This document shows positions 1 to 63,740 of a stretch of 64,000 nt of DNA, one piece after another. A model generated the notes under the pieces. The model did no database searches and was not told where the DNA came from. It saw nothing but the letters and a program-made list of their open reading frames with translations. The stretch is from Tribonema minus (Eukaryota; Sar; Xanthophyceae; Tribonematales; Tribonemataceae), in the NCBI GenBank assembly GCA_017506865.1, contig JAFCMP010000346.1:434001-498000 (forward strand). Direction: 5' to 3'. Numbering within the stretch: the first letter of the stretch is position 1; every line of letters starts with the position of its first letter. A program made the translations under genes and the position numbers.

Positions 1-200
1 TATTGCCGGACGGCATCATCATGTCGTGCATGCAAATCTGTATCTCCGACTTCAGGGACGTCGCCTGCACTCACGCCAGGGGGACAGAGCAGGGGTAACG
101 GTACGTATGGGCATATGGATATTGCCGGATGGCATGATCATGTCGCGCAGGCGAATCTGTATCACAGATTTCAGGAATGTCGCCTGCACTCGCGCCGGGG
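1..200 (-). repeat. Tandem copy of THOC2 exon-16 acceptor edge
   Basis: The exon at 64-1 with its upstream AG is repeated, decayed, at about 118-195 in the same orientation, with a period near 118 bp. The copy ends in a G run that reads as a C-rich pyrimidine tract on the transcript. Confidence 0.75.
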
Positions 201-3200
201 GGGGGGGGGGGTAAGGGTATGGGTATGCTTTGGAGGGAGGGAAAGAGCCAGGAAATGCCCCCATGTATAATCAAGGCTACTGAGGGAAAGGTCAATTGTG
301 AGACGAGGGGTATAGACTGTACACTCGCAAGTACATGGGAGTAGATGGGAGTACATCAGACAGTCGTCCAGCCTCATGAAGATGCTGACAAGGTTTGCAG
401 GCCATGTAGCTCGATGTAAAAGTGTACTGTCAAGTGCGTTCAAGTACTTCGCAGCATCTGTCCTGAAGTATATTGTTCAATCGGAGCTTGCGCTGACGCG
501 AATGTCGTCGCGCTGCTCCACATTGACGCCGCTGATCTCTTGCATATAGCAGTATGGGCATGCATACTTCATACTTGCGCTTTACGAGGTGGTCTAATCA
601 TTGAAGAAGTACACCCTGGCGCGCTTACGCTCGGCACTGTCGGCAGCGCTCCACATGGCGTACTCTGGCCGTGTCATGACACACATGGCAGAATCCAGGG
701 GGGGGGGGCACATGGAGGAGGACGTAGGGGAGGACCCCGAGATGCCATTTGGCGGCGGCGGCGTTTGAGTGGTTGTCGTTGCGACACTTTCAGACTGTCA
801 TACGACATGTAGATTCCTTACAGCTAGATGCCAATCATCTGGGCTTTTTCGCGCCCTGAGCGAGAATTAATAAAAAGTACACCTTAAGTATATCCTCAAC
901 CACTTATGTCTTTGATATACTACTTGAAGTAATCTTCAACAAGAACTTCCGCTGACGCGGATATCGTCGCGCCGCTCCGCAGTGATGGCGCTGGTCTCTT
1001 GCACATAGCATCAGTCCATGCATATGAACATGCATACTTCATACTTCCGCTTCAAAACACACACAACACAGTGTCTAGGTAGTTGTTGAGGAAGTACACC
1101 ACATCTACTTCAAGAAGAACTTACGCTGACGCGGATGTCGTCGCGCTGCTCCACGTTGGCGCCGCTGGTCTCTTGCTTATATATATAGCAGAATGGGGCA
1201 TACTTGACTATTTTGACTTGCCCTTCAGAAGACAAAACACAGTGTCCATAAAGTATTGGTGAAGCACGCTTCGAGTACATCATTATGCACTTACGCTGAC
1301 GCGGATGTCGTCGCGCTGCTCCACGTTGACGCCGCTGATCTTGGCCACGACGCCCTCAAACGTCTCCATTAGCGCCTCGCCGTCCGCGTGTCTGTCAGAA
1401 TTGGCAGAAAGAAAGGCAGAACCGATGTAATGTCGTGTCTGTGAGTCGTGGCAGAAAGAAAGGCAGAACCGATGTAATTGTCACATGCCCTTGCATACCA
1501 GTGACATCATCCCATTGATCACAGTCTGTGAGCACCAGCAGCAGGGTTGTCAGTTCACTGTGCGCTTCGTCATGCTTCAAAGCATCTTCTCAATTCGTTC
1601 AGCAGCACAGCACCGTCCGCGTGTCTGTGAGTATCCAAAGAAAGATTGGCAGAAACCATGTAATTGTCATCATGTACCCTTGCATCCCCAAAGACATATC
1701 CCCAATGAATATGATCATGGTGTCCTTTGAAGTCCTTAAGGACACGTGCTCAAGTGCTCTGCAGCAGATCACGGCAAAATTCTCGAGCGCAATGCACCTC
1801 CACGGGAACACCTTGACAATGTTCTTGAGCGCGAGGTGGCCGCACTTGATGGTCAGCGACTCTGCATAAAGTCGCCACTTCAAAGCTCCTGACACACGAC
1901 GTGCGTTCGTGCGTTCCACATCTACAGCTAAACGTCAAAACTGCGCGCGCAACGCACCTCCACGGGAACACCTTGACAATGTTCTTGAGCGCGAGGTGGC
2001 CGCACTTGATCGTGAGCGACTCCTGCGCGCGGTAGCACGCCTGCAGGCTCGTCAGGACGGCGGCGCTGCTCCTGTCGAGCACTGCTGCGAGCTCCTCCGC
2101 AGGGGGCGCGTCATCAGCGCCGCCCGTGGCCTCGCGCCACGCGTCAGCGCTCGCGCTCCACCGCAGGAGTGCCGTCAGGCTCTCGCGCAGCAGCGCTCCG
2201 ATGCTGGACGCCTAGCGCATTGGGATGGGGGGGGGGGAGGGGGAGTTGGAGAGTGAGAGTGTGTGTGGGGGGGGGGGGTGGGGGGGGGGGGGGGGGTGGA
2301 TGAGGATGAGCATCATCAGGCTCTCACACAGCAGCGCTCTGATGCAGGACGCCTGGCGCGTTGGTATGGGGGGTGGGGAGGGGGGGCTAAGCGGGAGGTG
2401 GGGGGGGGGGAGGGCATGTGGCTCGTCAGTGACCCTACGCATGCAGCATGCACACGATACTGTACGGACCCTATAAGGTTTATGGACTGCCGGTGGTGAG
2501 GTTTATGCACTACCGGTGAGGGCTTAAGAGTAATTGTCGCGTTCTGGGTCAGCAAGGTGAATGTGCGGCTGGAGAAGACACGGAGGGAGGCAGCGACGAC
2601 GGCATGTCGTGACGGACGCGCCGTGCACCTGCCCTTGCTGAGCACTGTGACAGTGATTGATACAAACTGCTAGACGCCCCGCCGCGCGCAGCCTTGCCGC
2701 TCGGTGCCAAGCAAGGAGTGCTGCCTCTCCCAGACTCCTTGCGAAACCTCAAAAATCTCAGGCCTTGTGCGCACAATCGTAGCAACCTGTAGTGATGGTG
2801 GGGCCAGCGGCACCCGCAGCTTAGAGTCAGGGTTGGCAGTCAGGGGTCAGTCCTGGCCTCATGGTTCTAGACACACTCCAAGATCTCTTAATCGGCAAAT
2901 TAAAGGTATTTTGACTATGAGTTCACTGTATATATACAAATCAGAAATCAATACTTTGAAGTAGTGTAGATGTTGCTAATGACGGTCAAGATTGGAATCT
3001 CAACTTTTTCCAAGCAATTAGGCTCCCCACATCCAAAAATTATCACACATTCACGGTTTGAACGCCAGGGTCTGCACGCGCAGCACCGCTCAGCACGCAC
3101 CTCCGTCTCCGTCGAGCAGTGCAGCGCGGTGCTCGCCTCACGCTCTAAACATCAACTAGGGTTAGGGTCAGGGTTTGCAGCAGCGCTCAAAAGCTTACCT

Positions 3201-6200
3201 CCATCTCCGTCGAGCAGTGCAGCGCGGCGGCGGCGCGCGCGACGCCGCGCTGCAGCAGCGGCACTGCGGGCCACGCAGCGAGGCCCTGCCGCAGCAGCGC
3301 GAGCGTAAACTGCGCCGCGTACGCAGCGTCCTCCTGGCTCAGCAGCGCCCGTGGCATCACCATGTGCTCCAGGATGGCGTCGGCGGCGGCGGCGGGGTCG
3401 GCGGCGGCGGCGGGACCCATGAGCGAGGCCGCCTCCGCGGCGATGTGCTTGAGGACCGCCGGGACGTGCGCGGCGTGCTCCTTCAGGTCGTGGTTCAGCT
3501 GCGCAGGAAGGACCACGGGTGAAGCGAGACAACTCGTGATTCGGATCTGCGAGCCGTAGTCTAGGCGCCGCGCGTAGTGCGTGGTGGCGTCAGTAGCGCG
3601 GCATTACGGGACGCCGCCTGCGATGTGCTTGAGCACTGCCATGGATCAGCTGCGCGGGAACGAGCGGATGAAGTGTGAAAACGACGCGCATGATGCAGTT
3701 GCGTGTGAGGCGTTGACCGCGTGGCCATAATGGCAGGCAGCGCTTATCAGAGCAGTTCCATGATATAGTTATTGCCTGTTGACAGCGCAAGACTGGCGTT
3801 GCACTGCAAGAGGCAGACACGTTCCTTCGCGCCAACATCGTGCTGCAAACGTGGATGCGGCGAAGCGGTGCGCATGCCTTGCGTGGCCATAGTGCGTGGC
3901 GGCGTCACGACAGCGGCGTTGCGGTGATGGGGTCTACTAGGGGATGCTTTCGCCTAAGGAATGTACCTGAGCACTGGGTGTGCAACGGTTGCAAACTCCA
4001 AAGTCGTGGTTCAGCTGCACTTTAACCATCGCCCTATCATGAAGCTCGAGGTGGTTGCGTAATACATGGCACCATGCCGTCTGCGCATGCAGATCTCATT
4101 TGACCGCAAGCACATAAATATGAAACAGTTGAGCACCCTGGGTCTAGCACGATGCTTCTGGGCAATGAGGGCACATACTGGCCACTGCTACCTGAAGTAT
4201 ACCTGGTGGTCAGATGGACGAGGACTTTTCATTAAAGCGCGGAAGATGCCACTTGGAAATGTCATGTCACAGTGATTGTCGATTCTTCCAAGTTTTACAG
4301 ACACGTGTAACTTCTGGTAGCAAGCTGAATATCTACCAGCTAGGCTGTTTCACACCTCAAGCAAGAAATCATTTTAAGTACACCTGTCGCTCTAGGTTTG
4401 ACGGCCAGTGCCCTTTTAAGAAATAGGTGCAGGTGTTTTTGGAAAGTGTGGTCTAAGACACTGTTGAAGGATATCGGTGCGACACCTGCGCAATGAATGC
4501 TGCTGCCCTCTCGACAACAGCACTGACTCAGACTTGATGACTCAGACATTGTAACTGCTTGATGAGCGCAGCTGCCTTCTCAATGACAGCACTGACTCAG
4601 ACTTGCCGACTCAGACTCTGTACCTGCATGATGAGCGCTGCTGCCCTCTTGACGATTAGCACTGACTTGGACTTGCTGACTCACACTCTGTACCTGAGTG
4701 ATGAGCACTGCTGCTCACTTGACAACAGCACAGACTCAGACTTGCTGACTCAGACTCTGTACCTGCATGATGAGCGCTGCTGCCCTCTTGACGATTAGCA
4801 CTGAATTGGACTTGCTGACTCAAACTCTGTACCAGAGTGATGAGCGCTGCTGCTCACGCGACAACAGCACAGACTCAGACTTGCCGACTCAATCTGTGTA
4901 CCTGCCTGATGAGCTTTGCCGCCGTCTCGACGATGGCACCGACTCAGACTTGTCGATTCAAACCGGTCCATTCAGACTCTGTACCTGTGTGATGAGCGCT
5001 GCTGCCCTCTCAACGTTGGCGTTGCGCTTGCGGCGCTCCTCGCGCGACTCGGACTGCGGCGCCACGCGGCAGCGCTCCGCCAGCCCCTGCAGCTTCTCCA
5101 CCTGCCGAAGCGCAGCGAGTAGGGTTAGGGCTAAGATGTGCCGCTTCAATAAATGAAAATGTGGTACTTTGAAGAATGGCCACGTACCGAGAGCACAGCG
5201 CCCGCGGTCCCCCCCGCGGTCCCCCCCCCCCCCCCCAAGGAGCATCAACACGCAGCACCAAACGTAAATCATGCCCCCATCTGCCGATGTCAGCAGGACC
5301 ACGTCGCTCTATACATACCATTATCTGCACTTCAAGGACTTGAACTGGATGAAAGTTGATAATAATTACCAAGCCCGCCTGCTTGCCGTACTTCGCCCTG
5401 CGCAGGTGCAGCTTGCCACCACGCACACACCTTGCGCAGATGTACTGCTGGAACTTTCTCTTCAGAGCGTAGGCGGGGGCACTTGAACCAATAAGGATCA
5501 TGGGGACACAACCGCACTAGATGCAAAAGTTGAAGGCTTTCTGCCACACATGTTTGAGTGAAATGACAGGGAAACCCACCTGCTTGCCGTACTCCGCCTT
5601 GGGCAAGTGCACGTCGTACAGGCGCAGCGACCAGAACAGCAGGTACAGGCGAGGCGTGATGAAGCGCCGCGCGTCCGCGGGCAGCGCGGCGTCGAGCGCT
5701 GCTGCAACATGCGGCGAGTCGTGCGCCCACGGGGCGAGCGCTGTCTCCGGCACCAGGAGCGTCGTCACACTGCGTCAAGGAGGGTCGAGGGGGGAGTGGG
5801 GGGGTGAAGTTGACGTTGAAGTTAGCAAGTGACCAATGCGCTGAAAAAAAGTGATGAGATTAGGCACCAGGAGCGTTGTCACGCTGCGATGAGGAGCATT
5901 ACAGGGGGGGGGGGGTGAAGTTGAGTTGGCAAGCGACCGATGCACTGGAGAAGGGGGGGTGAGATAACGCGCGGCGTCGAGCGCTGCTGCTACGCGCGCA
6001 GAGTCGTGCGCCCACGAGGCTGCAGCTGAAACTAGAGGCGAGCGCTGTTTCCGGCACCAGGAGCATCGCCACGCTGCGTTGAGGAGATTGTTGAACTTGA
6101 CGTGCAGAGGCACACCGGCTGCAGACCCTGTGCACGTAGCCAGTCATCGAGACGCAAGAGCGGCATAGGCATCACCCAGCTTCTTGCCCGCAGGTGGCGC

Positions 6201-9200
6201 CCGCCAGCAATGCGAGCGCCATCGGTGTGAGCGCGCTGAACCCTAACCCCAACTAAGACCGACGCACCGACGTCTGACTTGCACGCTTCAGAGGCGCGCC
6301 AGAGCAGCGCTGGGACTATAGGGCGGCGCAGAGGTAAACTTCAACTTTGGCACAGATGAAAACTTCAAGTGCACAGCGCGACGCAGCAGCTCAAGCGCGC
6401 CGGCCGCAGCACCGCAGCAGGTGATGTCGCGCTGCACACCGTGCCAGCAGCCACCGCTCCCATTCCGCACGAACATCGAGTACGTGATGAGCCAGCAGTG
6501 TGACTGACATTCTGACAACCGTTGTCATTCTAGAAATCGCGACTGCAACTGTTGCATGGCCCGAGCGACTGACGTGCTATGCCGACATCAGGAATGCGTC
6601 CAAGCCAGCACTTGGCTTCAAGTCCAAGCACGTGCCTACCAACTTTCAAGTGCTAACTTCAACATATGCGTGGCTACGCCCAGGCAGACATTGCTGATTT
6701 ATGAGGTTTGACCCCCAAGTAGAGTTGCCGGGGTGACTTGTGAAATCCGAGTCGATTTGTCACCGAGTAAACTCCCTCTGCCAAACAGACCGAGTCATGA
6801 TTAATGTGATCAGCCAAGAAGCGAGTCGATTTTTACTCGGACCCCCGAGTAAATGACCAGCAGCTCGCCAGGCGAGTAATGGCGAGTAATGCGGCAACAC
6901 CCGATTCTATACCGATTTTCACGATTGCATCGCATGTCCATCGTCGTTCCGGAGTCCTTTCTCGTGCCTCAAGCAGGAAGTTGCACTTCTGAGGCACAGG
7001 CTATTGCTGGTTTTGTCGAAATTGATGTGACGAGTGATGTCGCGCTTCTCGCCAAGCTTTCATGCTGCAGCAGCTTACAGGAGGCTCCCAAGAGCTTCCT
7101 CTCTTCCGTGAGATGCTCGTCCTCGACCTCTGAAGCATTGGTTGTTGCATGACTGAGTACACTAAACTCCATGCACGTGCATCCCCTTCATGAGGGGGCT
7201 TAAGTAGAGCATGTGGCTGCAGGCATTGGGGTGAGAACTCCAGCTCTTCCACCCTCAGTAAATCTGCTGCTGCAGCTTCTGCTACTTCATTGCATGGTAT
7301 TTTTTGTCACAAACCCCAGAAGTCGGCCCGACTTCGGAAGAATAAAAGGATTCGATTTCAACCTTTCGGAACTTCCGTCTGTCGGCTTTCGGAAAGGCCC
7401 CATCCCACACATGTGCAGCTTTGAAAAGAATCGGTGTTGGGACACCACACCGAGTAATTTTTTTCAGCATATCTGGCAGACCGACTGATTTAACACCGAT
7501 TTGAAATCGGTGTGTCCGGGACCCCGAGTTGCGAGTAAAACTCGGTCAAAAATCGATTCGCGACTCGGTCTGCCGAATAAATCGGCAATGTCTGCGCCCA
7601 GGCATGTGCACACTTCAAACTGTAAAGTTCAAGACAAACCTGGCCTGGTCAATGGGCGCCGCGGGAACCTTCTTGCCGGGCGGCAGCGGCGCGGCGTGGT
7701 GCGCGAGCCCCCACTCCTTGAGCAGCGCCTCGCGCAGCATCAGGCGCGCAGCGCTCAGCGCCGCTGGCACCGGCACGCCGCACTCCATCTGTGAAGGAGG
7801 TCGGTTGGCGAAATAGGTCAGTGCGCGGTCAAAGAGCTTAGGCGAGGGTTGGGCAACAGCAATGCAGCGTGCAGCGTGGGAACAGCAGAGTCTGGTCGAT
7901 CATGGAGGTGTGTTCACTAGCTTCCACTGGCATCAGGCGCGCAGCGCTCAGCGCCGCCGGCACCGGCACGCCGCACTCCATCTATGAGCAAAAAAAAGCA
8001 GACCGGAGGTAAGCGCCATGTACGTGCACGTGCGGCTAGTGTCAGGACAGCGTCGGGTGATCTGATTGAAGCTTAGATGTCATCAGACTGTCATTGGACA
8101 CGCAGCGCTCAGCGCCGCCGGCACCAGCACGCCGCACTCCAGCTGTGCCGTAAAGAGTGGGCGTTGGGTGATGAAAGAAGTCAGTACGCAGATAAAAGGC
8201 ACGGCAATGCGGCGCGGCAACAGCAAGTATGGGCGATGATGAAGTGGTGTTCACACATCCCCATTGGCATCAGGCGCGCAGCGCTCAGCGTCGCCGGCAC
8301 CGGCACGCCGCACTACATCTGTGAGCAAACAAGAGCAGCCACCCACAGGAAAGGAAGCCAGGAAGCATGTGTAACGCGCTCTGTACGTGCACGCGCGGCT
8401 AGTCTCATGGACAATGGGAACAGCAAAGTCTGATCGATGATGAAGCGGATGTGGCTCTACACTTGTAGAAGAGGGCGGCAGTGGCGATGCCCAGTGAAAG
8501 GAGTTCACCAAAGTGAGTTAGGGGGATTGGAAGAGCACCACGCCGTGAACATTCACGTTGCCCATTCTCAGCGTTGCCTTACCCCCAGTGTGCTCGCTGT
8601 GAGCATCTTATCACCGCCGCCTGCACAGCTGCAGCACCGTTAGATCTGGGTTAGATGCAGTCCCAAACCCTAGCGCTACCCCTAACCCTAACCCTGCGAG
8701 CACACCTACTCAACCTTGAAGCAATCCCTAATGCACCCCACAACTGAGCCCCAACGCCACCCTAGATCCCGCGTCCAACGCGCACTTAAGCGGTGGGTAG
8801 CGCACCTGCTCGATGAGCTTGGGCACACGTCCGCATTACCACTGCCCATATGTACAAACAGGATGCAGTCATGCAAGCCACGACAGCACTTCAAAATGTG
8901 AAATTCCCCGCAACTCTAGCCCTAGCCCTGAATCCAACTCAAACCCTAACCTCCCACCCTGGCCCCCACCACACACCCGAGCGCACCTGATCGGTGAGCT
9001 TCGGGCACACATCCACATACTGCGCCGCCAGCGCAGGCTGTGACGCAAAGTCCACCAGCTGCATGTGCGCTGCGACAAACTTCAACTTCAATGTTTCCCA
9101 ACCCTAGCCCAAACCTGACTCAAACCCTATTCCGCAACGCACACCCACGCACCTGCGTCCGCACACTGCGCCGTGAGCGCAGGCTGCGACGCGAAAATCC

Positions 9201-12200
9201 ACCAGCTGCATGTACGCCGCGACAAACTTTAACGTCAATGTTCCCCACTCTAGCCCTAGCCCTAGCCTTAACCCTGAACCAGACTCGAACCGTAACTCCT
9301 CACCACCCACATACGCACGCACCTGATCAGTGAGCTTCGGGCACACGTCCGCATACTGCGCCGCCAGCGCAGGCTGCGACGCAAAGTCCACCAGCTGCAT
9401 GTACGCCGCGTGCACTGTGTCGGCGCCGGCGCAGTACAACTTCAACAAGTTCTCGCGGCCCTTCTGGAACGGCCTTCCGGAGTCGTCGCCGGCGCCTTTC
9501 CCCGCCTCCCTGTACATAGGGTTGCACAAAGTAGGGTTGCACAAAAACATTGTTGGCCACATAAGCACGGCGTATTCACAGGGCATTTGGTGACCAAAAG
9601 GATGTCTTCAGCAAAACTCAAAGGGTTGCACAGAAACGTTGTTGGCAAGTACGGCGTATTCGGGGCGCATTTGGCAACCGAAAGTATGTCTTCAGCAAAC
9701 CTCAACATGGTGGCATTGCGCAAGAGGCGTATTCGTGGGGCGTGTAGCGAGTCTGCTCATTCCGAGCATACAGTCCACTATAGAAGGCACTTGAACTCAA
9801 CAATGAACTTCAACATACGCTCTTTTGTGCAACCGTACCCAGATATCCATGCCTACCCCTCCGCTGCCCCTTTAACTTAGAAATCAACTTCAACATGCGC
9901 TTGTGTGCACCTACCTGTACATGACGGCGCGTTGCAGCTTGGGCAGGAGGATCAGCAGCGGCGCGAGCGCGCCCGTGTGCTGGTTCAGGTTCCTGAAGAG
10001 GCTGCGGATGGCCGACGGCTTGGGGCGCTTGGGAATGTCGCCGAACGTCTCGGAGGTGAGGCGGAGGGCGTGGCTGCCGGCCTTGCCCTGCGCGCGCGCG
10101 CGTTTGTGGCAACGAGCAGCAGATATGATTAATTCAAAGCGTAGTTTCAGTATGCTGATGGCTGCACTACTGCTAACTATCGACGTGCACCTGTCGCAAA
10201 GCCACGGCGACGCACAGCAGATATGCTTGATGTAATGCCCCATTATATGCTGTTGCCGAAGTCTCGGAGGTGAGGTGGAGGGCGTGGCTGCCGGCCTTGC
10301 CCTGCGCGGGCGCGTGCATGGCCACGCACAGCGGATACATTCAACAACACTCAGTCACTGAGCATGGGCGGCGGCGCCTGGCGACCGAGGTTATTGCCGG
10401 AAGGCATTGGCGGCTAACCACACCTTGTCACCTAGAGCACTACGAGCTTTTGATTCCCTCACATGATCAATGGCAAGAGTGACTGAGCATGAGCGGCAGC
10501 GCCTGGCTGCAGGCCTTGTCATGCGCATGCGCGCGCGTCGTGCGAGGCAGCGCAAAGCACATATGCTTGACGTAATGCTCGATGATGAGATGCCACCGAA
10601 GGCCTTGTGCGTGGCAGTGTGCAGCAGACATCATTTCTTTCGAGAATAAGGTACTTCTAAGTATACTGATGGCTGTACAGCGCACCTGTCGCACAGCAGC
10701 GGCGAAGGGACTTGAGATGCAGCGTTAGTGCGTACGCATATATTCTACAACGTAGACGTCTTACTGTGTGCTGATACTATGCTTGGCGACGCACACTTTA
10801 TAAAAGTGATATTGACGTTGCACAATACCACATCCAGCTGTTCTGCATTGGCGCCATGTCACGCCGCCATCCCCCTGTGGTGAGGCAGTCTGGGGGCTAT
10901 TGCTATATCTACTGTCCCCCTCAATCACACGCCACCGCGCCTCAGCGCGCCCTTGCTGCCGCCATCTGTCTTTGACAACATGCCGCCAGCAACTCCAGCT
11001 TCGGCTGGTGCTGCTGCCGCCGGCAGCAGCGCCTCAAACTACGTACTGTACACCTCTGCAATACATTGCTGTATACCACTGGCGCACACGAACACATGTC
11101 CGGCTGATCGGCAGTATGTGTGTTTGGCGGACATGCCATCTGCCTGCGCCAACAGTTCAAGGTATGAATTGTATACTCAGTATGTACACTCCATCGCGGC
11201 GCACAATACGACGGCCAGCTGATGCGCTTTGGAGTACTGTATGATGCACACGCCGGCGGACTGCAGCAGCAGCTGAAATCATATACTGCACACTCGATGA
11301 AGCACGTTAAAGCACTCGCACGACACACACCACATTGAGAGTATACTGTACTGCCAACGTGCGCGCACATTATCACCTCCAGCTGATCAGCATTGGCGTC
11401 CTGTATGATGGAAACGCTGCCGGCCTGCAGCAGCAGCTCGCGCAGCACATACCTGCTGCATACTCATACCACTCACGATTGGCACTTCAAAGTACAGAAC
11501 TAATATGGATACTTTGAAGTACTTCTTTGAGGTACATGATATTACCTCCAGCTGATCGGCGTTCGCGTCCTGTATGACAGACACGCCGCCGGCCTGCAGC
11601 GGCATTCCGGAGCACATGCCTGCTGTATACTCACACTACTCATGCACGGCATAGGCTACACCTAACGTGCACCGCAATATCACCGTACCTCCAGCTGATC
11701 AGCGTTGGCGTCCTGTATGATGGACACGCCGCCGGCCTGCAGCAGCAGCTCGCGCAGCACGACCGCGCGCGGCGTGTCGGACGTCGACGCCGCAATGTTG
11801 CGCAGCAGGAAGTACACCATGCCGCGCATCTCCACGCCCGAGTACTGCAACAAGTTCAAGTTGAAGTTGACGCAGCGAAAGAGAGGGGAGGGTTGGGAGG
11901 TCAGGAGGGGAGGGGGAGGTCAAGGGGTGTGTGGGTGTTACAGGCGCGTATTCTGGGCGCATGGCAGTAACAAAAGCACGCCAATGCCAGGCTGACGTGC
12001 CACGCGCACGCGCGCTGACACACTGCGGAGGAAACATAACGATGCGCGCACATTGGCGTAGAGTCTGTCCACGGACATCGCGAGGTGCGAGAGCCACGGC
12101 GTGGTGCCCACACAAAGCCCAACTGCGATCCTGCAACCTCAGTATCTAGCAAAACACACCACAGTATAATAAAGCGCGCACCTTGGCGTAGAGCCCGCCG

Positions 12201-36400: not shown

Positions 36401-36960
36401 CATGCAGGCACAGCGGGTCCGGCGGCGATACTTATGTGCGGCGGCGAAGGGCGTCAGCACTGGCACGGTTTGCTCGTGATGGAGAAAATGCCCCCGGTAA
36501 AGCACAGGTGCACGAGAACTTTTCCCAGTGGAAGCAAAAGCATTCCGCAGAGTCCTGGCCTCAACGATCCGCTTTGCCACCTACGAGATGCGGCATCAAC
36601 AACGTGACTTGCTCACGATGGCGAACACGACCCTCCGTCAAGTACTTACACAGCGGAAGCAGAAGCGTCATGTATGTACACAATCAACACGACGTTTGCC
36701 AAGTACCAGATTAGGAGTGCCGAGCAGGCACAGCGGGTCCGCCGGCGACGGGATGCGCGTCGGAGACGGCGTCGGCTGGGGCGTCGGCTTGGGAGTCGGG
36801 GGGATGATGCACGGCGCACCCGTGTTGGCGCAAGACAGGTTGGTCGCGAGGACGCCGTTGAGGCAGCACTCGTAGTAGCCGCCGGGGAGCGTCTTGCACG
36901 TGCTGCCGCCGCACACGCCGCCGCACGTGTCCTTGGGGCAGCACACCTGGTTGGACTGCG

Positions 36961-36993
<33 letters not shown>

Positions 36994-46817: not shown

Positions 46818-48025
<1,208 letters not shown>

Positions 48026-50687: not shown

Positions 50688-53600
50688 TTAGGCGTCGAGG
50701 CTTACGCGCTTCTTGGCCATGCCAGCGTCGTCAGCGATTTCCAACTCCTCAAGGGATTTGCCTGCCAAAGATGTGAAGCGCAGCAAAATCATGCATACTT
50801 CAAAGTGAGCACAGTGATGTGTACTTCAAATGTGTACTTCCAACAGCTGGCCCTCGTCCAAAAACCAACTGTGATACTAACCCCAGATACGAACACACAT
50901 TGCGGCGCAGTGACCTAAGTAAGCGGAACCCGGCATAAGGAAGGCTTCCACCGCGCGCGTGTGCTGAGTGCTACCGGACCAATATAACTTGAAGTGATCA
51001 GTTGCAATGTGTGTGGCGATGGCATTAGCCACGCAGCGTCGGTTGAGGATGGTTAGCGCCATCATTCAACGCACACAGAAGAAGCCTGCGTCTGCTTGAC
51101 ATGATGAATCGAGAGCATGGCATGGCATACCACAAGCATAGGGTGGTATGTATGTGCGTGCGGGCGAGGCAGCGCTCAGACTGGATCTGGTGTGTGATGG
51201 CACGGCGAAACAAGCCCCGTTGTTGACGAAACGAACAGCACGACGCTTGACCGGCGACTGCAGCACATGCAGCAAGGACATCCTAGAGCACTCTTGACTG
51301 AAGACTGAAGGCCTAATACGGTTCTGATGCCAAACAAAGAACTTGCAGGGTGTATCGTGGCAGACACACAGCGCCGGTATGCGAGGCACAAGTGAATCGC
51401 GCAGCAAAATGAGGTTGAGAGCCCGAGCCACATGTGCTGGCAGCAACAGGAGTACCAAGGAATGAAGCGCTCGGACAAATATTGCTTGCTGCGGAAATTG
51501 CTCATCTGTTCCCAGTACATATCTTCTTTATCTTCTTTTTTAGTGTTGTTGAGGCAACCGCACCGCGCACACTCTGGCTCCATTCTTCGTGGCATGCTGT
51601 GCTCTACAACTTAAGAGCGGCACTGCAGCTAGCTACTGTTTTAGTGAGATTTGGCTTATTGTTAGACTTGAGGTCGTTTACAAGGCGCAAGTGTCATTGG
51701 CACTGCGTCATCAGTGACTCGTTACATGGTGAGGCAGTTGGCCTTCCAGACTGGAGAATCCATGAATCATCATGATCTGGCTTTTTGAACCTCTTAACAA
51801 GCAGCAAAAAATCCCAGTACAGTATAAGTGCATCCTAAGCCTCACCCTTAGTTTCCGGTACGAACAGCAGGGATATGATGAGTCCCAGACCATTACTCGC
51901 TGCCAGGATTGCGAGCGAGTCTTGCAGACCGATCCCGACGTCGCCGTAGTCCGCTCGGTCCTGCGGATTGCTGGGGTCCTTGGAGGCATACAGGAAGCCT
52001 GTATACATACATACATGCAGGTGGATGTGTCAATCGGTATACTTTATACTGCGCGGTCATGTGGAGTGCTGGGGCCCTTGGAAGCGTACAGTGTGTACAT
52101 ACATACATGCAGGTAGATGTGTCAGTACTAGTACCTAGTTCACACACACACATAACAAGCACCCATACATGTAGCAACCTGTTGTGCGGCAACCCAGTGC
52201 AGGGTGCTGGCCGTATGTGTAACCGTCAAAGGTTGCCGGCGACGTCTATCGCATGTTGACGACCAGCCCGGCCGCCAATGGCTGCTGGGTATGTGAGGGC
52301 ATGCTTCAAACATGCATACTAGAAGTGCATACATGGCAGACTCTAACAGGGGCGGACAGATGGACGAGGATGTAGTGGGGGAAGAGATGCCTTTTGGCGA
52401 CGTCGTTCAGATGTGCTCATCATTGAGATACCGTCAGCTCGTCACACGACACGTAGATTTATGCTATAGCATTGATGTCAATCATCTGGGTTTTTTTGCG
52501 CCCTGAGATAATTGATGAAAAGTACACATATACAAATATGCCTACATGAATACGTACATACATCTATGCCTGAGTGTACACACCTACATAAATACCACTG
52601 AACATAGTGTACAAACATACACACGTACCAAAGGCGCCAATGATGGCCCCCGCCTTGCCGCACGCTGCGCAGAAGCCGTGCGCGGAGCATCGCCACGCGC
52701 TTGGGAACACCTCAGAGGGGATGATGAAGGTGGTGGAGTTGGGGCCCCTGTTGCAGGGGTCATGTCAGAAATTTCAATGCAGCGGGACAAGGTCTTTTAG
52801 GCGTTGCTGCATTTGGGAGCAGCAGTGGTCGTGTCAGAGCTTCAAGGCAGCGGCATAAGCTCTTAGTCTTTGCTGCCTTGTGAGATCCGCCTGGGTGACA
52901 GAGCCCTAACCACGACCTTTGACTATCAGACCGCATTGCTCGTGCTCGTGTGACTACCGTACTTACAGACTTTGTGCAGAAGTCACGATGGGCGTACTGT
53001 GCGTGGCGTCATAACGTCAGTTAGGGGGAGGGCTAGGGTTAGAACGTGACACGCGCCACTCCCGTGCCTGACACTCATCAGTTGGCAAAGTCAGCGCGTA
53101 CAGAATCACAAACGCCCCAAACCCTAACCCTAGCCCTTACCCAAACCCTAGCCCTGACCCTAAGATGTGATACGCGCCACCCTTGTGCTGGGCACTCACC
53201 AGTTGGCAATGAAGGATGTCCACGCGTACAGGAACACGAACGCCCCTTACTCTAACCCTAATTCTACCTCTACCCCCAACCTAACTCTAACCCTAAACCT
53301 AACATTTACCCCATCCCTAACCCTAGCCCTGACACTAATGCGTGACACGCGCCGCCCCCGCGCTGCGCACTCACCAGTTGGCAAAGAAGAACGTCAGTGC
53401 GTGCAGAATGACAAACGCCCCTAACCCTAACCCTAACCCTAACCTCAACCCTAATCCTGACCGTAAGACGTGACGCGCGCCACTGACTCACCAGTTGGCA
53501 AAGAAGAACGTCAGCGCGTACAGAATGACGAACGCGGCGGTGTTGTCGAGCAGGTCGTTGTATGCTCCCGCGAGGATCGCCATGAACAGCGTCATGAAGA

Positions 53601-56600
53601 AGAAGCCGCCGTCCTGTATCTTCTTGCGGCCGAGGATCTCAACTGTGAAGACGGTCATCCAGTAGCCCGGGATGGTCGAGAACAGGGCGAGGATGGACTG
53701 GAAGGAGGCAGCGGTGGGGCGCGAGAGCGCGATGAGATGAGTCGCTTCAACATGGCACTCATGGACTTGAAGTCATGCACAAATAGTCAGAGACTGCCAA
53801 AACATCATGTCGAAGTCGCCTGCGCGCGCGCGATGATGAAGGTCTCGTGCAGCGGGCTCATAGAGCTCCACGACACACGAACACGTCGGCACGTGCAACG
53901 CATCGTTGCTTCAAAACACGTTTGTCCGACACTGTCCGACACTGCTGAACTGTGCCGTGCGCCACATACAGCAGTGCCATAATGCGACAAGCGCTGCAAC
54001 AAACATGTTGAACTTGGTGTTATCATGTTGAACTTGCCTGTGCACGCGCAACGAGAAAGGTCTCATACAGCGGGCTGATGGAGCACCACGACCCATGAAC
54101 ACACCAGCATATGCAACGCATCGTTGCTTTCAGAAATGGCCGTCCGGCACTGTCGCACTGCACCGAGCGCCACCTACAGCAGCAGCACCCTGACGCGACG
54201 ACCACCGCAACAAACATGTTGAACTTGCAGTAGTCATGTTGAACTTGCCTGCGCGCGCGCAATCAGGAAGGTCTCGTACAGCGGGCTCATCCAACACCCC
54301 GCATCCTTGTCGTGGCACGCGTTGCCGAGGCTGTTCTGCAGGTCAGGGGAGCAGTCAGCGGTGCCCGCAACCTCGGGGTAGGCAACGCTGGAGGAGGACG
54401 CTGAGCCTGTGCCGTAGTTGTAGCCCGCGGTGCTGCGATCGCGTAAGCGGATATCGGAGTCTGAGTCAGCTGCAGTGATGGGAATCGTGCATGCAGGCCG
54501 GCATACAGTAGCACGCAGTACCAGTGCGCAACTCAGAGGTATGCACCAGGCTCATAAACGAAGTACAGAAGTTCGGAGCAGAGTCGGCTGCAGTGCGTAC
54601 AGCGATGCGCCGCGATGAGCATCACCGACAGCATTTGTCAATTGCGTCATGGCTGTGACCGCAAGCACCCTGTGCCGCACTGCTGCACGGTAGCAGTTGC
54701 CCCAGCAGCGCTCAGCCTAATGTGCAAGCGCCAGTGCAGGGGGTGACACACATGCAGAGGGTCTTGAAAGGGTACCATGGCCAGCGCTCAGCTCAATGTG
54801 TAAGCGCAACTGCAAGGGGTGACGCACCTGCAGAGGGTCTTCAGGGGCACCATGGGCGACTGGTGGTAGATGTCTGAGTCGGGCCAGTACACGTTGATGG
54901 AAGGGACCCAGCCTGAGAGCAGCACGGGTGGCAGGCAAAACAAGTTTTTGTCAGATAATATCGGTCGATACGTTTCCAATTCAATTGGGTACTAGAGAGC
55001 ATCAGATGAGGAGTGTAGCGCGGCAAAGGAACGTCGATCAACTTGTAGAAAGCATTTGCTTCTATGTGCGGCACTGAGGCGGGGGCTGAGCAGTGACACA
55101 GCTCGTAACTTCCGACCGTGACGTGCACGCACACTACAACGATTCCGCAGCAGCAAAGGCACTTCACGTGATACACTCTCCGCACCAAGCGCCAGCGCTA
55201 GCGGCCCAGTCACGTATATACTCCAAATATGCGCACATGAGCGTGGTGGCAGTTCCAACCCCAACCTCAACCCTAAACCTTTATGTGTTGCCTACCAGCT
55301 AGGGCTCTGCTTCAGCTACGTGTTTGTGTTGTTGGCCTGTGCCAGACAACAACTTCAAGTGATGGCACCACGCCGCAAAACCTTGTCATGCTATTCCATA
55401 CGCCTGTTCTCCGTATGCCCCTGGCGGCAGCACTAACCCTACCCGAAACCCTATATCGTCGCTCACCGATGGTCTTGAAAACTTCGGACTAAAACAGCCC
55501 CTGTGAGTAGAAGGCAATGTCAAATAGGAACCAGCACATGGATCCCTACATACCTCACACATGTTTACATACCCCACACGGACGCATCACTCACCAATGG
55601 TCTTGAAGACGTCGGACTGGAACAGGCCCTGCGAGTAGAAGGCAATGTCGAGGAGGAACCAGCACATGGAGCAGCCAAACAGGCGCGAGCCGTAGACGCG
55701 CACGAACTCGCGCCACGTCGTGCGGCGCCGCGCGCTCGAGTTCTCTGCAACGACCGCGTGGCCCAGCACGCCGGTCATGTCCTTGGACGCCTTGGCCTCG
55801 TTGTGCTCCACGTGCATGGTGAACCTGCCGAGGCACGGACGTGTTGAGAACCGTTAGCAGATCAAACTTCAACTACGACTTCAACTCTGGATGACTTTGA
55901 GTTGATGCAAAGTGTCCGTGACAACGGCGTGGCCCAGCACGCCGGTCATGTCTTTAGACGCCTTGGCTTCATTGAGCTCCACGTGCGTGGTGAACCTGCC
56001 AAGGTGCGGACGAGTTGAAATTAGCAACTTCAACTGCAACTACGATGAGTGGATACATAGTGTCGGCGGCAACAGCGTGGCCCAGCACGCCCGACATGTC
56101 CTTGGACGCCTTGGCTTCGTTGTGCTCCACGTTCATCGTAAACCTACCAAGGTGCAGAGATATTGAGAATCATCAGCAGATGCAACTTCAACTTTGTTGA
56201 TGATTGTCAAGTCCTGCAACTACCTCAACACACTACTTCAACCTGTAATGGCGGCCAAAGCGTATAGCTGCTGACCTCAAGCGTACTCATTAGGGCTTGC
56301 ACTATGCATCAGTTCTTCTGCAACTACTGAATGTGTTGAGCACTGCTGTCACCTGGCCGTCTCCGGCATCTTCAGCCGCAGGTACATGGTCGCCACCGTG
56401 GGGATGGCGCTGAAGCCGAGCACGATGCGCCACACGTAATCGGCGTTCATGGGGTTCTGGTCCACAAGGTTCTTGAAGGCGGCGCTCACAATGACAGTGA
56501 CAGCGGCGGCCACCAGGATGCCCGTGCCCTGCGCAAGAGGGAGCAATCGTTGCGGTTAATTATGTAAGCTGATAAAGTTCATGACAAAGGGCACGGGTGT

Positions 56601-59600
56601 TCTGGTCCGCAAGGTTCTTGAAGGCGGCGTTTGCGATGACAGTTACGGCAGCCGCCACCAAGATGCCCGTGCCCTGCGCGAGAGGGGGCAGTTGTTGAAG
56701 TTAATCATTGAAGTACATGATAAAGGGCTTGGGGTTCCAGTGCACATGGTTCTTGAAGGTGGCGCTCACGATAGCAGTTACAGCAGCCGCGACCAACTGC
56801 TTGTTCCCTGCCGAGAGGGGGCGGTCATTCAAGTTGATAGTTGAAGTACAAGATGAAGGGAAGACCTGGCATGCCTCTGGTGTAGTGATGCGACCATACT
56901 ATCCGTATATATATCGAGAAGTATGACAGTCCAGGCACACTATTGAAACATTCCGATGATGTGGCAGGCTAATATTATATGTGTTACAGTGCTGAGCATC
57001 TCCGCTCTGAAGCACACAACTTCTGCACACCAGACCCCACATACTTCTCTCCGCAACTTCCTGAGCTGGGTATCAGTAGCCTTGCAGGTTTCTGAGCTGG
57101 GTAGCCCTAGAATGTATGACCATCTGAGTTGCAGAGACAGCCCTGAATTCTGTATAGTAGTGCTAGCACTAAAGTTGACAATGTGAAGCGTATGCACTTG
57201 AGCTACTGAATACTGGGATTGCCCTAGAAGTATGCCTGCAACACAATGGTGTCATAGGTACCTGCATGGCGAAGACAGCTGCCACAAATGCGCCGCGGTT
57301 GTTGATGGAGCTGCGACAGCAAGAGGTGTGGTAGGTAAGCGTGAAGCGTATCCTGCCGCAGCATCAGACATCAACGCCATTGCAACTGCACGCACTACAT
57401 GGACACATGCCACTGCCATGGGTCCACATATCACGAGCAGTCACAATTAAGCGGCTTGCATTCATAGATGCCCCGAACTTGTGTACTTAAATACTTGCAT
57501 TCTCAGGTCCTTGAAGCAGAAGGAGTCCACAAAGCGCAAACGGTGTAAGCAGGGTGGGCAAGGCGCAAGAGAGCGACATGCTGATCTTCAGCTCTACCTT
57601 GAAGACTTAGACATGTCTTCAGAAGAATGCACAAGCACCATCTAGTCTCACCAGTCAATTTGAAAGCGAGACATGTTGAGGTGCAAACACCCCAATCGAC
57701 TGCTGGATGCCATTACCATCGCTCGACAACACTGAGGTTCAGCATTCCAGAGTGGCGCCATACATACATAAATGCACAGATGCACGTATACTTCTGAAGT
57801 ACGAGATGACTGACTCACCTGTATTCAGACATGATGGTGGCAGAGAGCGGGTAGTCACCGCCGACGCCTAGCCCAAGTCTGCCAGACAGAACAGCCAGAA
57901 AAAAAAAAAGGCAGTGGCGTCGACAAAGCAACTAAAACCATCTGCTGCCATGCAAGGGTCACAATGTCCGCCTCTGGACGGCTTCATTTACAGTTGCAGG
58001 CGATGATCACGTCAGATTGCGAAAGCGCAGCGCATGTGAGAAGGTTTGCGGTATCAGTTGACTCCATAAGAAGCGGTACAGAACGGACACAAGCACGGCT
58101 AACCCCAACCCTAACCCTAACACAAGCACAACATACCCACCATGCAGCCAAACTACATCATGGACTCTTGTGGACACTACAAGCGTCCACATGCAGAGTT
58201 TGTGTGTGTGGGGGGGGGCACACACATTGTTGGGTGTGGAGCGCTGCCGCCCCAGTGTTGCTGGCGTTTGTGTGCAGCATGGGGCAATGACACAGGTCCC
58301 GGTTGCTTCACACTGTTACATCGCAACTTCAACTTCACACAAAAACTTTAAAGCTGAGGTGCCAAAGCATGCGGTACTCAGGCACAGCCATATAGAGCAC
58401 GATTCACCGACATGAATCACAAATGTGAATCATGAACGTGAATTCACGTACAGGAATCGCCAGAAGCACAGCGTGCCCACGACGGCGTCGGGAGAGTTCC
58501 CAAAGGACAGGGACGAGCCAACGCTTGCCACCACCATGAGCCACAGCGTGAGGCCGTAGACGGCTCTGCGACCGAAACGGTCACCCTGCACAGCGCCAAA
58601 AGTATCGCGTTAACGTGAATTACATCGAGCTTCCCTAGAACCTGTATAGTGTTTGCGTGCGTAACGTCAATTGTGGCATTTGGTTTTCCTCAGAATTCAT
58701 GTTGTGGTGTAAGAAGGTGGGCGCGGGACGCGCCATTGACCATGTGCACGTGGTGACGCAAGCGATGGGAGTGCAGCAAGACACGGCTGCGCAGACGGTA
58801 GCAAACGTCGCCGCTGATGATGGAGTGTACTCTGTTCGTGCGTGCAATGCACAACGATGACATGAGCTCTGTTTGTATGAGGCCCACTGCCGTTGACAAA
58901 AACCTCCACATTGGCAATCCTGATGGAAATTGATGGCAAAGCAATATGTATGTGTTACGTCTACCACAACATTCCACATGGACACTGAAAGTCGTGACAA
59001 GCATTGGATTGGTATTCCATCCATCATGGGCGCACTTGCTCATGAACATCACAATGAACATCAGAGGTGAAGTTACAAGCTAAAAAAGGAGAACTTCAAG
59101 TTGAAGATCCTCACCAGGTAGCCGAACAGAAGCTGGCCCGCGAGCGTTCCGCACAGAGCCACGCTGGTGAGCGCGGCGGCGATGTTGATGGGCATATGTC
59201 CGCCATAGCTGCAGCAGCGTGACCACATGGCATGATTGGCAGCAATTGCACTAGTGTCAGCGGCCATAACAGACAGGGTGCACGCTGGTTAACAGCGCGG
59301 CGAATAGAGACGCCCTTGATGACAACCTACATTGAGGCCCGCTCAAGATTACAGTGGCGATGTGATGCTGACCCCAGCATGAAGGAGGCTTTACTTGGGT
59401 ATGTATGTATTGCGCACACCGTCCAGAACCCTGAGGTGCACAAGGTTCACAGTTTGCTGGTAGATGTGCTGGATTGGATACTTCAAAGTACTCTGCCAGT
59501 CACCAGTGGCTGATTGAATACTTCAAAGTACTTCTCAGTACTTTGCTAGTCACCAGTAGTCGAGCTGTGTGCGGACATATTGTATGCAAAGAGTGTGGTG

Positions 59601-61915: not shown

Positions 61916-63192
61916 TTCAGCCTTCTCGTTCGTGGCCCAGCTCCGTGCTTCTCAAGGCAGCGGTGCTAAGCTGCGTTACCGCAAGAGAAGACCCAGTTGT
62001 TGCCGTCAATCATCCAGGGGGAGAGATTCGCTTACTTTCTTTTTTCGAATCAGAACAGACATCGGAGGTTGAAGTTGAAGTTGAGCAATGAAAATTCCGA
62101 CTTGACTGTGAAGTGGTAAAACCTTGTTTTTAGACACAATTTGGCACTCTTATGGAAGGCTCATTTTGAGATGCAGACCAAGCATACATCGTGGATGTCA
62201 AGCAAGCATCATTACTCACACAGCATGAGGCACCACGTACCAGGGCCTGCCTGAGCATGATCGGTCAATGGCACGTAGTATTTCAGCAACCATAGGCAAA
62301 GCAGCAGTTGCTGAACCAAAGGCAGGGCGCAAGTGTGCCCAGAAGAGCGTTTGTGCAATGCAGGCAATGCCGGTGGCAACCGCCAGCATAAGCCTTCACA
62401 ATTGCCAAACAGCTGCGTGTGTGAGTGGTGTGCAAATCTGCACACAGCTCATGCACGTGCGACATTCATCAAACAGGCATCAGTGAAGGCAATAGCAGGC
62501 ACCGCAGCATGTCAAGACCAAGAGGAGATCTGTACATTCCTCCAGGCGTGGCCTGGCTTGAAAATAGGGCAGTTGCACCGCCCTTTCCGCATGTCAGCCC
62601 TGTAGATCTGCCAGGGCTTTTGTGTAACCGACTTGTGTCGTGCGTCCTCAAAAACACTACAAGCGGCGCCTCTTGTGCGCCGGCACACAACACACATGCA
62701 CACATATAGGCCCCACACAGCGGCGTGCACATGCCGCGGGGAGGCTGAGAAAGGGAGGCACACGGGGGCACTGCACTTTACGTACTTCAAGTGGCACTGC
62801 ACTTCAAGTGGAGTAGGGGGGCGTCTAAACAGTCTGCTACACGAGGAGGGCGCTGCTGTGTTTCTCGGCAGCTGCTGAAGCCCTGCTGCTGCTGCTGTTG
62901 CACCACACACTGAGCGCTGCTGTGTGGCAATCGCCGAGCACTGCTGTGCTGCCGCCGCGGCAATCGCCGAGCACTGCTGTGCTGCAGCGGCGCCCTGCGG
63001 CGGTCCCTCGGTCCCAGCGCTATGGCATTGGCGCACACACAATATGCAGCAGGAAGGCGGGGGGGAGGGGGGTCCCATTACCAGGGTGTCGCAGGAAGTG
63101 CGTTGCCTGTTTGAACCCATGTCACGGGTCCTGTCCTGTCCGGGCCTGCTGCTGGGAGCAGCAGTGGCAGCGCCGCTATGACGGCGATGCTG
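61916..63192. other. Intergenic region upstream of PHT1 and downstream of a second GH26 gene
   Basis: About 1.3 kb; the PHT1 promoter should lie here. It contains a short tandem repeat of a CAATCGCCGAGCACTGCTGT unit of about 24-30 bp near 62925-62985, next to CTG-rich sequence at 62880-62900. No gene was recognised. Confidence 0.5.
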
Positions 63193-63740
63193 CTATGGCT
63201 TGGTGACCTTCTCGAACTCATTGTATCCCTCCACCCATGCTTCAACATCGGCCTGTCGAAAGAAGAGTATCAGGAGAGGCAGATCAGAGTTGAAGTACTC
63301 CGGAAGTTCTCGTCTAGTTCAGTTGAACTACTGCACGCAATGGGGGATCACGTCCGGCAGTCAGATTGGGTGACACTGGCTGTGTTCAGGCCAATGAACA
63401 CGTGGCAATAGCACAGTGCACAGAAGGGTAGCGTACAGTGTGCTCGGACAGACGTGGCTCACAACAATCACGACTCGTGTTCGGGCATCTCTTGCAGAGG
63501 GGACGCATGTGACCATGCTGCTGTGTGCGACTGCCGTCAGAGTGATGTTGAAGCTGAATTTAAGTTTAAGTTGGACCTAGGGATTAGCATGGGCCACAGA
63601 GACGGTTTGCTGCGCACCTTTGAGTTCAAATCCCAGTCCCTGTTGAGTGAGTCGATCTTGTTCTCCAGGAACCAGTTGATGACGGTCACGCGCGTGAACT
63701 GGTACGCCAGCGATCGCCACGTATCGAGCAGCCATTGCGG
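63193..63740 (-). CDS. C-terminal exons of a second GH26 glycoside hydrolase (5' part beyond right edge)
   Basis: Two exons, 63740-63618 (41 codons) and 63252-63193 (19 codons plus stop), both phase 0. They match the last two exons of the gene at 24407-45071: QFTRVTVINWFLENK and DWDLNSK in the first, EAWVEGYNEFEKV in the last. The longer exon shares 29 of 41 residues with its paralogue and has the identical length of 123 nt. The catalytic residues would lie in exons to the right of the window. No further exon was recognised in 63741-64000. Confidence 0.88.

What the first reader, a model, noticed from the sequence alone, without database searches (positions are those of the whole stretch)
1..63260. 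Introns built from decayed tandem copies of their own exon edges
At least 30 places in five unrelated genes contain one to about seven decayed copies of a flanking exon end together with its splice junction. Copies of a donor edge always lie downstream of the true donor. Copies of an acceptor edge always lie upstream of the true acceptor. All keep the orientation of the gene. The simplest explanation is repeated tandem duplication across splice junctions, leaving the outermost copy in use and the inner ones decaying as intron. This is a genome-wide-looking route to intron growth that I do not know as a described feature at this density. Tandem duplication of AGGT-containing exon sequence has been proposed for intron birth, but not this self-derived satellite pattern.
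Basis: partly seen in the sequence, partly recalled or inferred. Interest (0 to 1): 0.9.

Follow-up and report, generated by a model that had tools for sequence, protein, structure and literature searches.

The report
Introns grown from duplicated exon edges
In this stretch of an unnamed eukaryote's genome, many introns contain decaying tandem copies of the exon end next to them, and the copied pieces straddle the exon-intron boundary far more often than random duplication would produce.

Summary
At 73 splice junctions placed by protein homology or reading frame in four genes, the exon edge recurs inside its own intron at 36 (shuffle p≤0.01). The reverse complement recurs at 0 of 73. Repeats within 3 kb are direct: 113 pairs against 0 inverted. 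An ankyrin gene and the start of ARF show the same pattern.

The copies are tandem units of about 160 bp that straddle the junction, with about 50 bp of exon and 105 bp of intron, alike at donors and acceptors. They look like freely decaying DNA: exon and copy differ by 6.1, 6.9 and 15.4% at codon positions 1, 2 and 3. Units make up about 30% of measured intron length.

Random duplication plus purifying selection predicts mostly intron-interior duplicates; 32 of 37 arrays have 20-90 bp of exon and 5 do not. None of 314 presumed-intergenic probes repeats locally, against 221 of 1053 non-exonic probes in gene spans. Something focuses the duplications on exon boundaries.

Nine literature searches listed no description. 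Organism, transcripts and genome-wide extent are untested.

The parts
46963..48025 (+). ARF1 gene: exon 1 (first intron base 47221), intron, exon 2 (from 47738)
   Evidence: assembled 181-aa protein aligns without gap over 180 residues to ARF1 3aq4; Pfam Arf
47159..47542 (+). ARF1 donor-edge array: true edge plus 2 downstream copies (P 167 and 304); first copy's donor reads AT, second has no donor at the aligned place
   Evidence: 60/62 and 61/72 identical in the exon part
47574..47796 (+). ARF1 acceptor-edge array: one upstream copy with AG kept
   Evidence: 55/59 identical, P 161
46826..47008 (+). ARF1 first coding exon start and preceding CGCGCAG copied 93 bp upstream; candidate 5'UTR-intron acceptor, not among the 73 junctions
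   Evidence: self-BLAST 85.6% over 90 bp; sequence
464..1341 (-). THO2 T16 donor-edge array, 3 copies with the same 47-bp exon part
1380..1702 (-). THO2 T16 acceptor-edge array (weak: exon part 12/12, p 0.008)
1771..2022 (-). THO2 T15 donor-edge copy
   Evidence: 66/68 identical
2175..2414 (-). THO2 T15 acceptor-edge copy
3080..3227 (-). THO2 T14 donor-edge copy
4484..5020 (-). THO2 T13 donor-edge satellite, about 69-bp unit; 6 junction-reaching copies, 5 with GT
5371..6086 (-). THO2 T11 donor-edge copy (5371-5611) and acceptor-edge copies (5684-6086)
7737..8445 (-). THO2 T10 acceptor-edge array, 3 copies
   Evidence: 51/52, 49/52 and 39/41 identical
8799..9410 (-). THO2 T9 donor-edge array
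   Evidence: 76/80 identical in the best copy
10036..10586 (-). THO2 T8 acceptor-edge array
10820..11760 (-). THO2 T7 donor-edge array, 3 copies
   Evidence: 69/72, 63/70 and 52/60 identical
12036..12240 (-). THO2 T6 donor-edge copy
   Evidence: 47/58 identical
13134..13710 (-). THO2 T5 acceptor-edge array, 2 copies
19914..20181 (+). Ankyrin gene donor-edge copy (GCGATCAAG|GTCAGC repeated, P 139), fifth gene, not among the 73 junctions
28888..29294 (-). CYSGH G29b donor-edge array
30492..31302 (-). CYSGH G30 acceptor-edge array, 4 copies, all 4 with AG
32857..33856 (-). CYSGH G33 donor-edge copy (32857-33364) and acceptor-edge copy (33434-33856)
34012..34973 (-). CYSGH C34 donor-edge (34012-34249) and acceptor-edge (34351-34973) arrays
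35286..35775 (-). CYSGH C35 donor-edge array
   Evidence: 72/77 identical
41239..41603 (-). CYSGH C41 donor-edge copy
   Evidence: 61/69 identical
42514..43149 (-). CYSGH C43 donor-edge array; 4 copies keep CAG|GTACAT
51953..52124 (-). PHT P12 acceptor-edge copy, no AG at the aligned place
53045..53535 (-). PHT P10 donor-edge array, 3 copies, TTAGGG-like runs at unit boundaries
53804..54301 (-). PHT P9 donor-edge array (GC donor), 2 copies
55459..56193 (-). PHT P8 donor-edge copy (55459-55670) and 2 acceptor-edge copies (55750-56193)
56450..56860 (-). PHT P7 acceptor-edge array, 2 copies

Best explanation
These introns have grown by recurrent tandem duplication of segments of about 160 bp that straddle an exon-intron boundary. 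Steps shown: the unit contains about 50 bp of exon, the splice site and about 105 bp of intron; it is repeated head to tail in gene orientation, often with the same exon-side end in successive copies; exon and copy differ as expected if the copy decays freely while the exon changes mainly at third positions. Steps inferred: the outermost donor or acceptor stays in use, because only it leaves the mRNA unchanged, and the inner copies become intron. In this window the duplications are concentrated at exon boundaries rather than scattered through introns or intergenic DNA. The cause is unknown. My working guess is a boundary-focused DNA lesion: paired nicks, or replication slippage, with one end in the GC-rich exon and one in the AT-richer intron, repaired by fill-in. 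Selection against long exon copies that could act as pseudo-exons may trim the exon share.
For: Direct pairs within 3 kb 113, inverted 0. Copies at 36 of 73 junctions, reverse complement 0 of 73. Homology continues past the junction in 46 of 60 copies. Exon-copy differences by codon position 61/996, 69/996, 152/986; 143 synonymous, 134 non-synonymous, 5 stop; 21 indels in the exon parts (66 copies). Unit step median 161 bp; exon part 21-88 bp in 32 of 32 first copies, at most 0.48 of the exon in the 26 with known exon length. Donors and acceptors have the same geometry: exon side 47 and 52 bp, intron side 105 and 104 bp. Of 38 repeat clusters in or overlapping the four gene spans, 34 contain a known junction (3 of these 34 lie in the paralogous or Pro/Thr-rich part of CYSGH). 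Hiding all known exons and exon copies still reveals 19 of 31 junction arrays, so most interior arrays would have been visible. Chance of at least 32 of 37 arrays having a 20-90 bp exon part: 6e-14, or 3e-6 if only a tenth of interior arrays were detectable (intron lengths with the copies taken out). Non-exonic probes with a non-exonic local copy: 221 of 1053 in gene spans, 0 of 314 presumed intergenic.
Against: No transcripts, so actual splice-site use is unproven. One 64-kb window, 4-5 genes, organism unknown. 37 of 73 junctions show no copy, with long blank stretches (5' PHT, 5' THO2). Junction focus was measured on arrays found partly through exon-edge queries; BLAST was the check, and 5 arrays inside the gene spans have no exon part (3 of them within 24 bp of an acceptor). 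Exon parts may be under-measured where decay stops the alignment; one later, doubtful copy (C38d, second) has 195 of 358 bp. Partial coding constraint on copies is not excluded: non-synonymous differences are 47.5% against 64.7% under random placement, which third-position change in the exon would also produce. Unrecognised exons inside gene spans count as non-exonic. The intergenic sample is only 9.6 kb. No breakpoint motif was seen, so the initiating lesion is speculation.
Confidence: 0.72

Rival explanations
1. Unbiased local tandem duplication everywhere. Exonic and exon-destroying events are purged, and exon-edge copies are merely the most visible survivors because exons change slowly.
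For: Tandem structure, gene orientation and free decay all follow. Exon flanks mismatch less than intron flanks (0.106 and 0.260 in 43 copies chosen by the exon side; 0.122 and 0.195 in 25 chosen by the intron side), as one-sided decay predicts.
Against: Predicts about 61% interior duplications and exon shares spread from 0 to 1. Observed: 5 of 37 arrays without a 20-90 bp exon part, and no first copy with an exon share above 0.59 of the unit. 0 of 314 presumed-intergenic probes.
Confidence: 0.17
2. RNA-templated local insertion: unspliced pre-mRNA is reverse transcribed at a break in its own gene, producing junction-spanning copies only in transcribed DNA.
For: No local copies in the presumed-intergenic stretches. 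Junctions with copies lie further 3' in two of three genes (permutation p 0.003-0.006, found after looking). TTAGGG-like runs occur in introns and in none of the 9.6 kb intergenic sequence.
Against: Copies are tandem and include intron; CYSGH shows no 3' bias. Does not by itself explain the junction anchoring.
Confidence: 0.07
3. Copies are kept by selection because extra splice-site contexts help recognition or allow alternative splicing.
For: 32 of 37 donor copies keep GT or GC, and 21 of 23 acceptor copies keep AG.
Against: That retention is about what 6-7% change per site predicts (my estimate: 0.935 squared is about 0.87). Exon-copy differences fit free decay. Use of the inner site meets a stop in 54 and a frameshift in 5 of 60 cases.
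Confidence: 0.03
4. Assembly or sequencing artefact.
For: None found.
Against: Exon parts of junction-reaching copies are 79-100% identical to the true edge, most of them below 100%, and the differences fall mainly at third codon positions, an evolutionary signature.
Confidence: 0.01

Closest known systems
Intron gain by tandem genomic duplication of an AGGT-containing exon segment (passages seen in PMC3443670; PMC4974935 seen only in search listings)
   Same: Local tandem duplication near splice signals; the copy becomes intron while the coding sequence is unchanged.
   Different: There the duplicated unit is exonic and creates a new intron that is itself the unit. Here existing introns grow: the unit spans an existing junction, and no copy ends flush with the far end of its intron (0 found among the copies at 73 junctions).
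Introners and introner-like elements (PMC9860276: search listing with start of abstract, and two reference-list passages)
   Same: Mass change of introns within one genome.
   Different: Introners are one sequence family spread over many introns. Here each junction has its own private copies.
Intronic minisatellites (general knowledge, recalled)
   Same: Head-to-tail repeats inside introns; the THO2 T13 array is a 69-bp satellite.
   Different: Each unit contains an exon end plus a splice site and is anchored to it.
Tandem exon duplication and mutually exclusive exons (general knowledge, recalled)
   Same: Local duplication of exon sequence within a gene.
   Different: Only one exon edge is copied, at most 0.48 of the exon in 26 of 26 first copies with known exon length; copies show no clear coding constraint.

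Membership tests
Tandem-genomic-duplication intron gain | intron equals one duplicated exonic unit, so an exon copy ends flush with the far intron end | tested here: not met
   0 flush copies among the copies found at 73 junctions
Tandem-genomic-duplication intron gain | local tandem duplication in gene orientation | tested here: met
   113 direct, 0 inverted pairs within 3 kb
Introner elements | similar sequence shared by many unrelated introns | tested here: not met
   pairs 3 kb or more apart: 10 direct, 3 inverted; exon edges exceed threshold in non-cognate regions in 127 of 4222 comparisons. One window only.
Introner elements | terminal repeats or target-site duplications | not tested
   no element body was recognised
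Intronic tandem repeats (minisatellites) | head-to-tail units with a regular period | tested here: met
   steps 56-695 bp, median 161, quartiles 120 and 191; T13 steps 83 then 69-70
Tandem exon duplication | whole exon with both splice sites copied | tested here: not met
   exon part at most 0.48 of exon length in 26 of 26 first copies with known exon length
Tandem exon duplication | copy under coding constraint | tested here: inconclusive
   differences fit free decay of the copy plus third-position change in the exon; partial constraint not excluded
Tandem exon duplication | copy spliced into mRNA | not testable with these tools
   no RNA data; an inner site would meet a stop or frameshift in 59 of 60 cases

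The most novel reading that the evidence does not exclude
This lineage has an active mutational process aimed at exon-intron boundaries. It duplicates segments of about 160 bp centred about 30 bp into the intron, equally at donors and acceptors, fast enough to mark half of the junctions examined and to supply about 30% of intron length while the copies changed by only about 6-7% per site. Intron length here would be set by a boundary-guided process (chromatin, DNA composition or transcription), not by transposons or random indels.
Probability: 0.4. Interest if true: 0.85.

Novelty: new variant of a known kind. Interest (0 to 1): 0.7.

Why it matters
How introns lengthen is usually attributed to transposons and random indels (general knowledge). 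If duplications are aimed at exon boundaries, intron growth has a traceable history: each copy is a datable fossil of its own exon edge. It would link DNA damage or chromatin at exon boundaries to gene architecture, and give a natural series of duplicated splice sites for testing how the spliceosome picks the outer one. The test is simple in any assembled relative: dot-plot each intron against its flanking exons.

Tried and rejected
Tried without result. The window's genome is not held. Rfam found nothing at the gathering score. Relatives were sought in viral contigs with ARF, part of PHT, one THO2 exon and one Cys-rich exon and in prokaryote genomes with ARF. A haptophyte guess was dropped as untestable. 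A PDB search with the last PHT exon alone gave one match at E=0.086, taken as chance.

Considered and rejected. Inverted repeats: none within 3 kb by BLAST. Intron birth by AGGT duplication: no flush copies. Conserved or functional copies: no clear sign. A GC step deciding which junctions have copies: p=0.30; exon GC alone is borderline, 0.684 with and 0.654 without copies, p=0.052. A hexamer filler at unit boundaries as the cause: 15 of 62 boundary windows against 13% of random intron windows, and two arrays supply 7 of the 15. No motif was seen by eye at the exon-side breakpoints of 32 first copies.

Rows dropped. C40d, C38a, C37d (and C38d) were left out of the unit and flank analyses because of paralogous or Pro/Thr-rich exons. 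Copies whose alignment stopped more than 6 bp from the junction were left out; one search used stricter limits (2 bp, 30 bp aligned). In the intron-side choice, gaps were commoner on the exon side (0.177 per bp) than on the intron side (0.078), which I put down to imprecise placing of the copied junction. One search used 66 copies aligned over at least 20 bp. One search failed on a script error and on a write error; both were rerun corrected. Two earlier tallies of mine are replaced. An earlier count gave 33 of 37 clusters, and a recount gives 34 of 38. One search used 35 arrays; one search added two without an exon part, so one search used 37.
Full report
WHAT WAS CHECKED. The window is eukaryotic: intron-rich genes with GT-AG and at least one GC-AG intron, GC 51-70% by 2-kb step. 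No genome is held for it, so everything rests on 64 kb. Genes were identified as follows. THO2/THOC2 on the minus strand: PF16134, PF11732, PF11262. ARF on the plus strand: Pfam Arf, and the assembled protein aligns without gap over 180 residues to ARF1 3aq4. A phosphate transporter (PHT) on the minus strand: only sub-threshold Pfam matches for single exons, but the joined exons P3-P12, with P9 in part, match 'Inorganic phosphate transporter 1-11' at E=1.4e-108 over residues 15-423 of 424. An ankyrin gene on the plus strand. A minus-strand gene with repeated Cys-rich exons (CYSGH) has no match above Pfam's cut-offs for the five stretches tested; I read its downstream WYPWG and HEFNG motifs as GH26-like from memory. 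Its exons were placed by open frame, splice consensus and resemblance to each other, so they are less secure than the rest.

Self-comparison gives 113 direct and 0 inverted pairs within 3 kb at E≤1e-3. A looser probe scan gives 492 direct and 10 inverted hits among 2132 probes. For 73 junctions I compared the exon edge (up to 80 bp) with its own intron, up to 1500 bp: 36 of 73 have a copy at p≤0.01 and 0 of 73 in reverse complement. By gene: ARF 2 of 2, PHT 6 of 19, THO2 15 of 26, CYSGH 13 of 26, with 79 copies above threshold in total. Non-cognate regions pass the same threshold in 127 of 4222 comparisons, so about 3% is background. The ARF intron is the cleanest example. The exon 1 end recurs twice downstream (60/62 and 61/72 identical); in the first copy the donor GT reads AT. 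The exon 2 start recurs once upstream (55/59) with AG kept. Outside the 73, the ankyrin gene has a donor-edge copy 139 bp downstream, and the ARF start exon has a copy of its CAG-plus-start-codon region 93 bp upstream, which would fit a 5'UTR intron acceptor.

THE ORDER RULE holds with few exceptions: the predicted side of the exon shows copies for 30 of 62 edges and the wrong side for 5 of 62, three of these in the paralogous Cys-rich gene.

ANATOMY OF THE UNIT. In 60 junction-reaching copies the exon part is 91% identical, and the intron part predicted by tandem duplication beats all of 50 shuffles in 46. Steps between successive copies have a median of 161 bp, quartiles 120 and 191 (62 copies at 32 junctions). 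The exon share is 21-88 bp in the 32 first copies and at most 0.48 of the exon in the 26 with known exon length; one later copy at a doubtful junction (C38d) has 195 of 358. Successive copies often share the exon-side end (47, 47, 47 at T16d), which points to re-duplication of an existing unit. Donors and acceptors have the same geometry: exon side 47 and 52 bp, intron side 105 and 104 bp. Units account for 8166 of 27216 bp in 33 measured introns, and 21 of the 33 contain at least one.

DECAY. Differences between exon and copy are 61/996, 69/996 and 152/986 at codon positions 1, 2 and 3, with 21 indels (66 copies). Equal change at positions 1 and 2, with the excess at position 3 that synonymous change in the true exon would add, is what free decay of the copy predicts; partial constraint is not excluded. 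Exon flanks mismatch at 0.106 and intron flanks at 0.260 when copies are chosen by the exon side (43 copies), and at 0.122 and 0.195 when chosen by the intron side (25 copies). That is roughly the one-sided against two-sided decay expected. Splice dinucleotides survive in 32 of 37 donor copies (GT or GC) and 21 of 23 acceptor copies (AG); using the inner site would meet a stop in 54 of 60 cases, a frameshift in 5, and would stay open in 1.

If duplications fell at random and only harmless ones survived, about 61% should lie inside introns and exon shares should run from 0 to 1 (71% with present intron lengths). Instead, of 38 repeat clusters in or overlapping the four gene spans, 34 contain a known junction. 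Three of these 34, 36404-37549, 37572-38630 and 39697-40371, lie in the paralogous or Pro/Thr-rich part of CYSGH. Of the other four, two lie 6 and 24 bp from an acceptor, one is the ARF start and one (54706-54855) is unassigned. With every known exon and exon copy hidden, 19 of 31 junction arrays are still found, so most interior arrays would have been visible; that run added two further arrays without an exon part, 35968-36064 (18 bp from C35a) and 37262-37492. The tally is therefore 32 arrays with a 20-90 bp exon part and 5 without, the ARF start left aside. The chance of at least 32 of 37 is 6e-14 at the measured detectability and 3e-6 if only a tenth of interior arrays could be seen. These probabilities treat arrays as independent. 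Non-exonic probes with a non-exonic local copy number 221 of 1053 in the gene spans (91/371, 3/75, 87/366, 2/21, 36/126, 2/94) against 0 of 314 in three presumed-intergenic stretches; the 20.4-28.5 kb stretch of unknown content gives 24 of 269. Probes overlap, so these are not independent counts.

AGAINST THIS READING. Half the junctions have no copy. Two genes show a 3' bias (p 0.003-0.006, found after looking) that the model does not explain. The CYSGH gene inflates counts through its own repeats. I have no transcript, no second strain and no replicate genome.

LITERATURE. Nine searches of the open-access library showed listings of at most 20 papers each; none listed was one that I recognised as describing splice-junction-spanning tandem copies as a route of intron growth. 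I read passages only of PMC3443670, PMC8469720, PMC9860276 (reference list only), PMC4580454 and PMC12480563. Subscription journals are largely not held, so novelty is provisional.

VERDICT. A real, strongly non-random pattern. Tandem duplication is shown and free decay is well supported; outer-site use is inferred; the reason for the boundary focus is open.

Noticed in passing
introns of ARF, THO2, CYSGH, PHT; presumed intergenic 44.1-46.7, 48.1-51.7, 60.6-64 kb: TTAGGG-like runs make up 2.7% of intron bases and none of 9.6 kb intergenic sequence; TTGAAG-like runs are 3.2% and 2.0%. Some runs sit at unit boundaries (P10d, C43d, T9d).
   Followed up: partly
57.0-60.5 kb and 13.8-18.6 kb: The 5' parts of PHT and THO2 have almost no exon-edge copies, the 3' parts many.
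   Followed up: partly
54706-54855, 37262-37492: Tandem duplications inside gene spans with no assigned junction; may flag unrecognised exons.
   Followed up: no
24980-25332, 27728-27903, 27942-28247, 1-219: Local duplications (best pairs 97% over 64 bp and 100% over 42 bp in two of them) where no gene model was made.
   Followed up: no
30036-30118, minus: ARAGORN calls a tRNA-Cys (gca) inside the CYSGH span between known exons; Rfam at the gathering score does not.
   Followed up: no
34-44 kb, minus: Gene with repeated Cys-rich exons (CC...GGxxC...CC) joined by Pro/Thr linkers, no Pfam match above cut-off for the stretches tested.
   Followed up: no
54248 (PHT P9 donor): A GC-AG intron whose GC donor is copied twice.
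   Followed up: no
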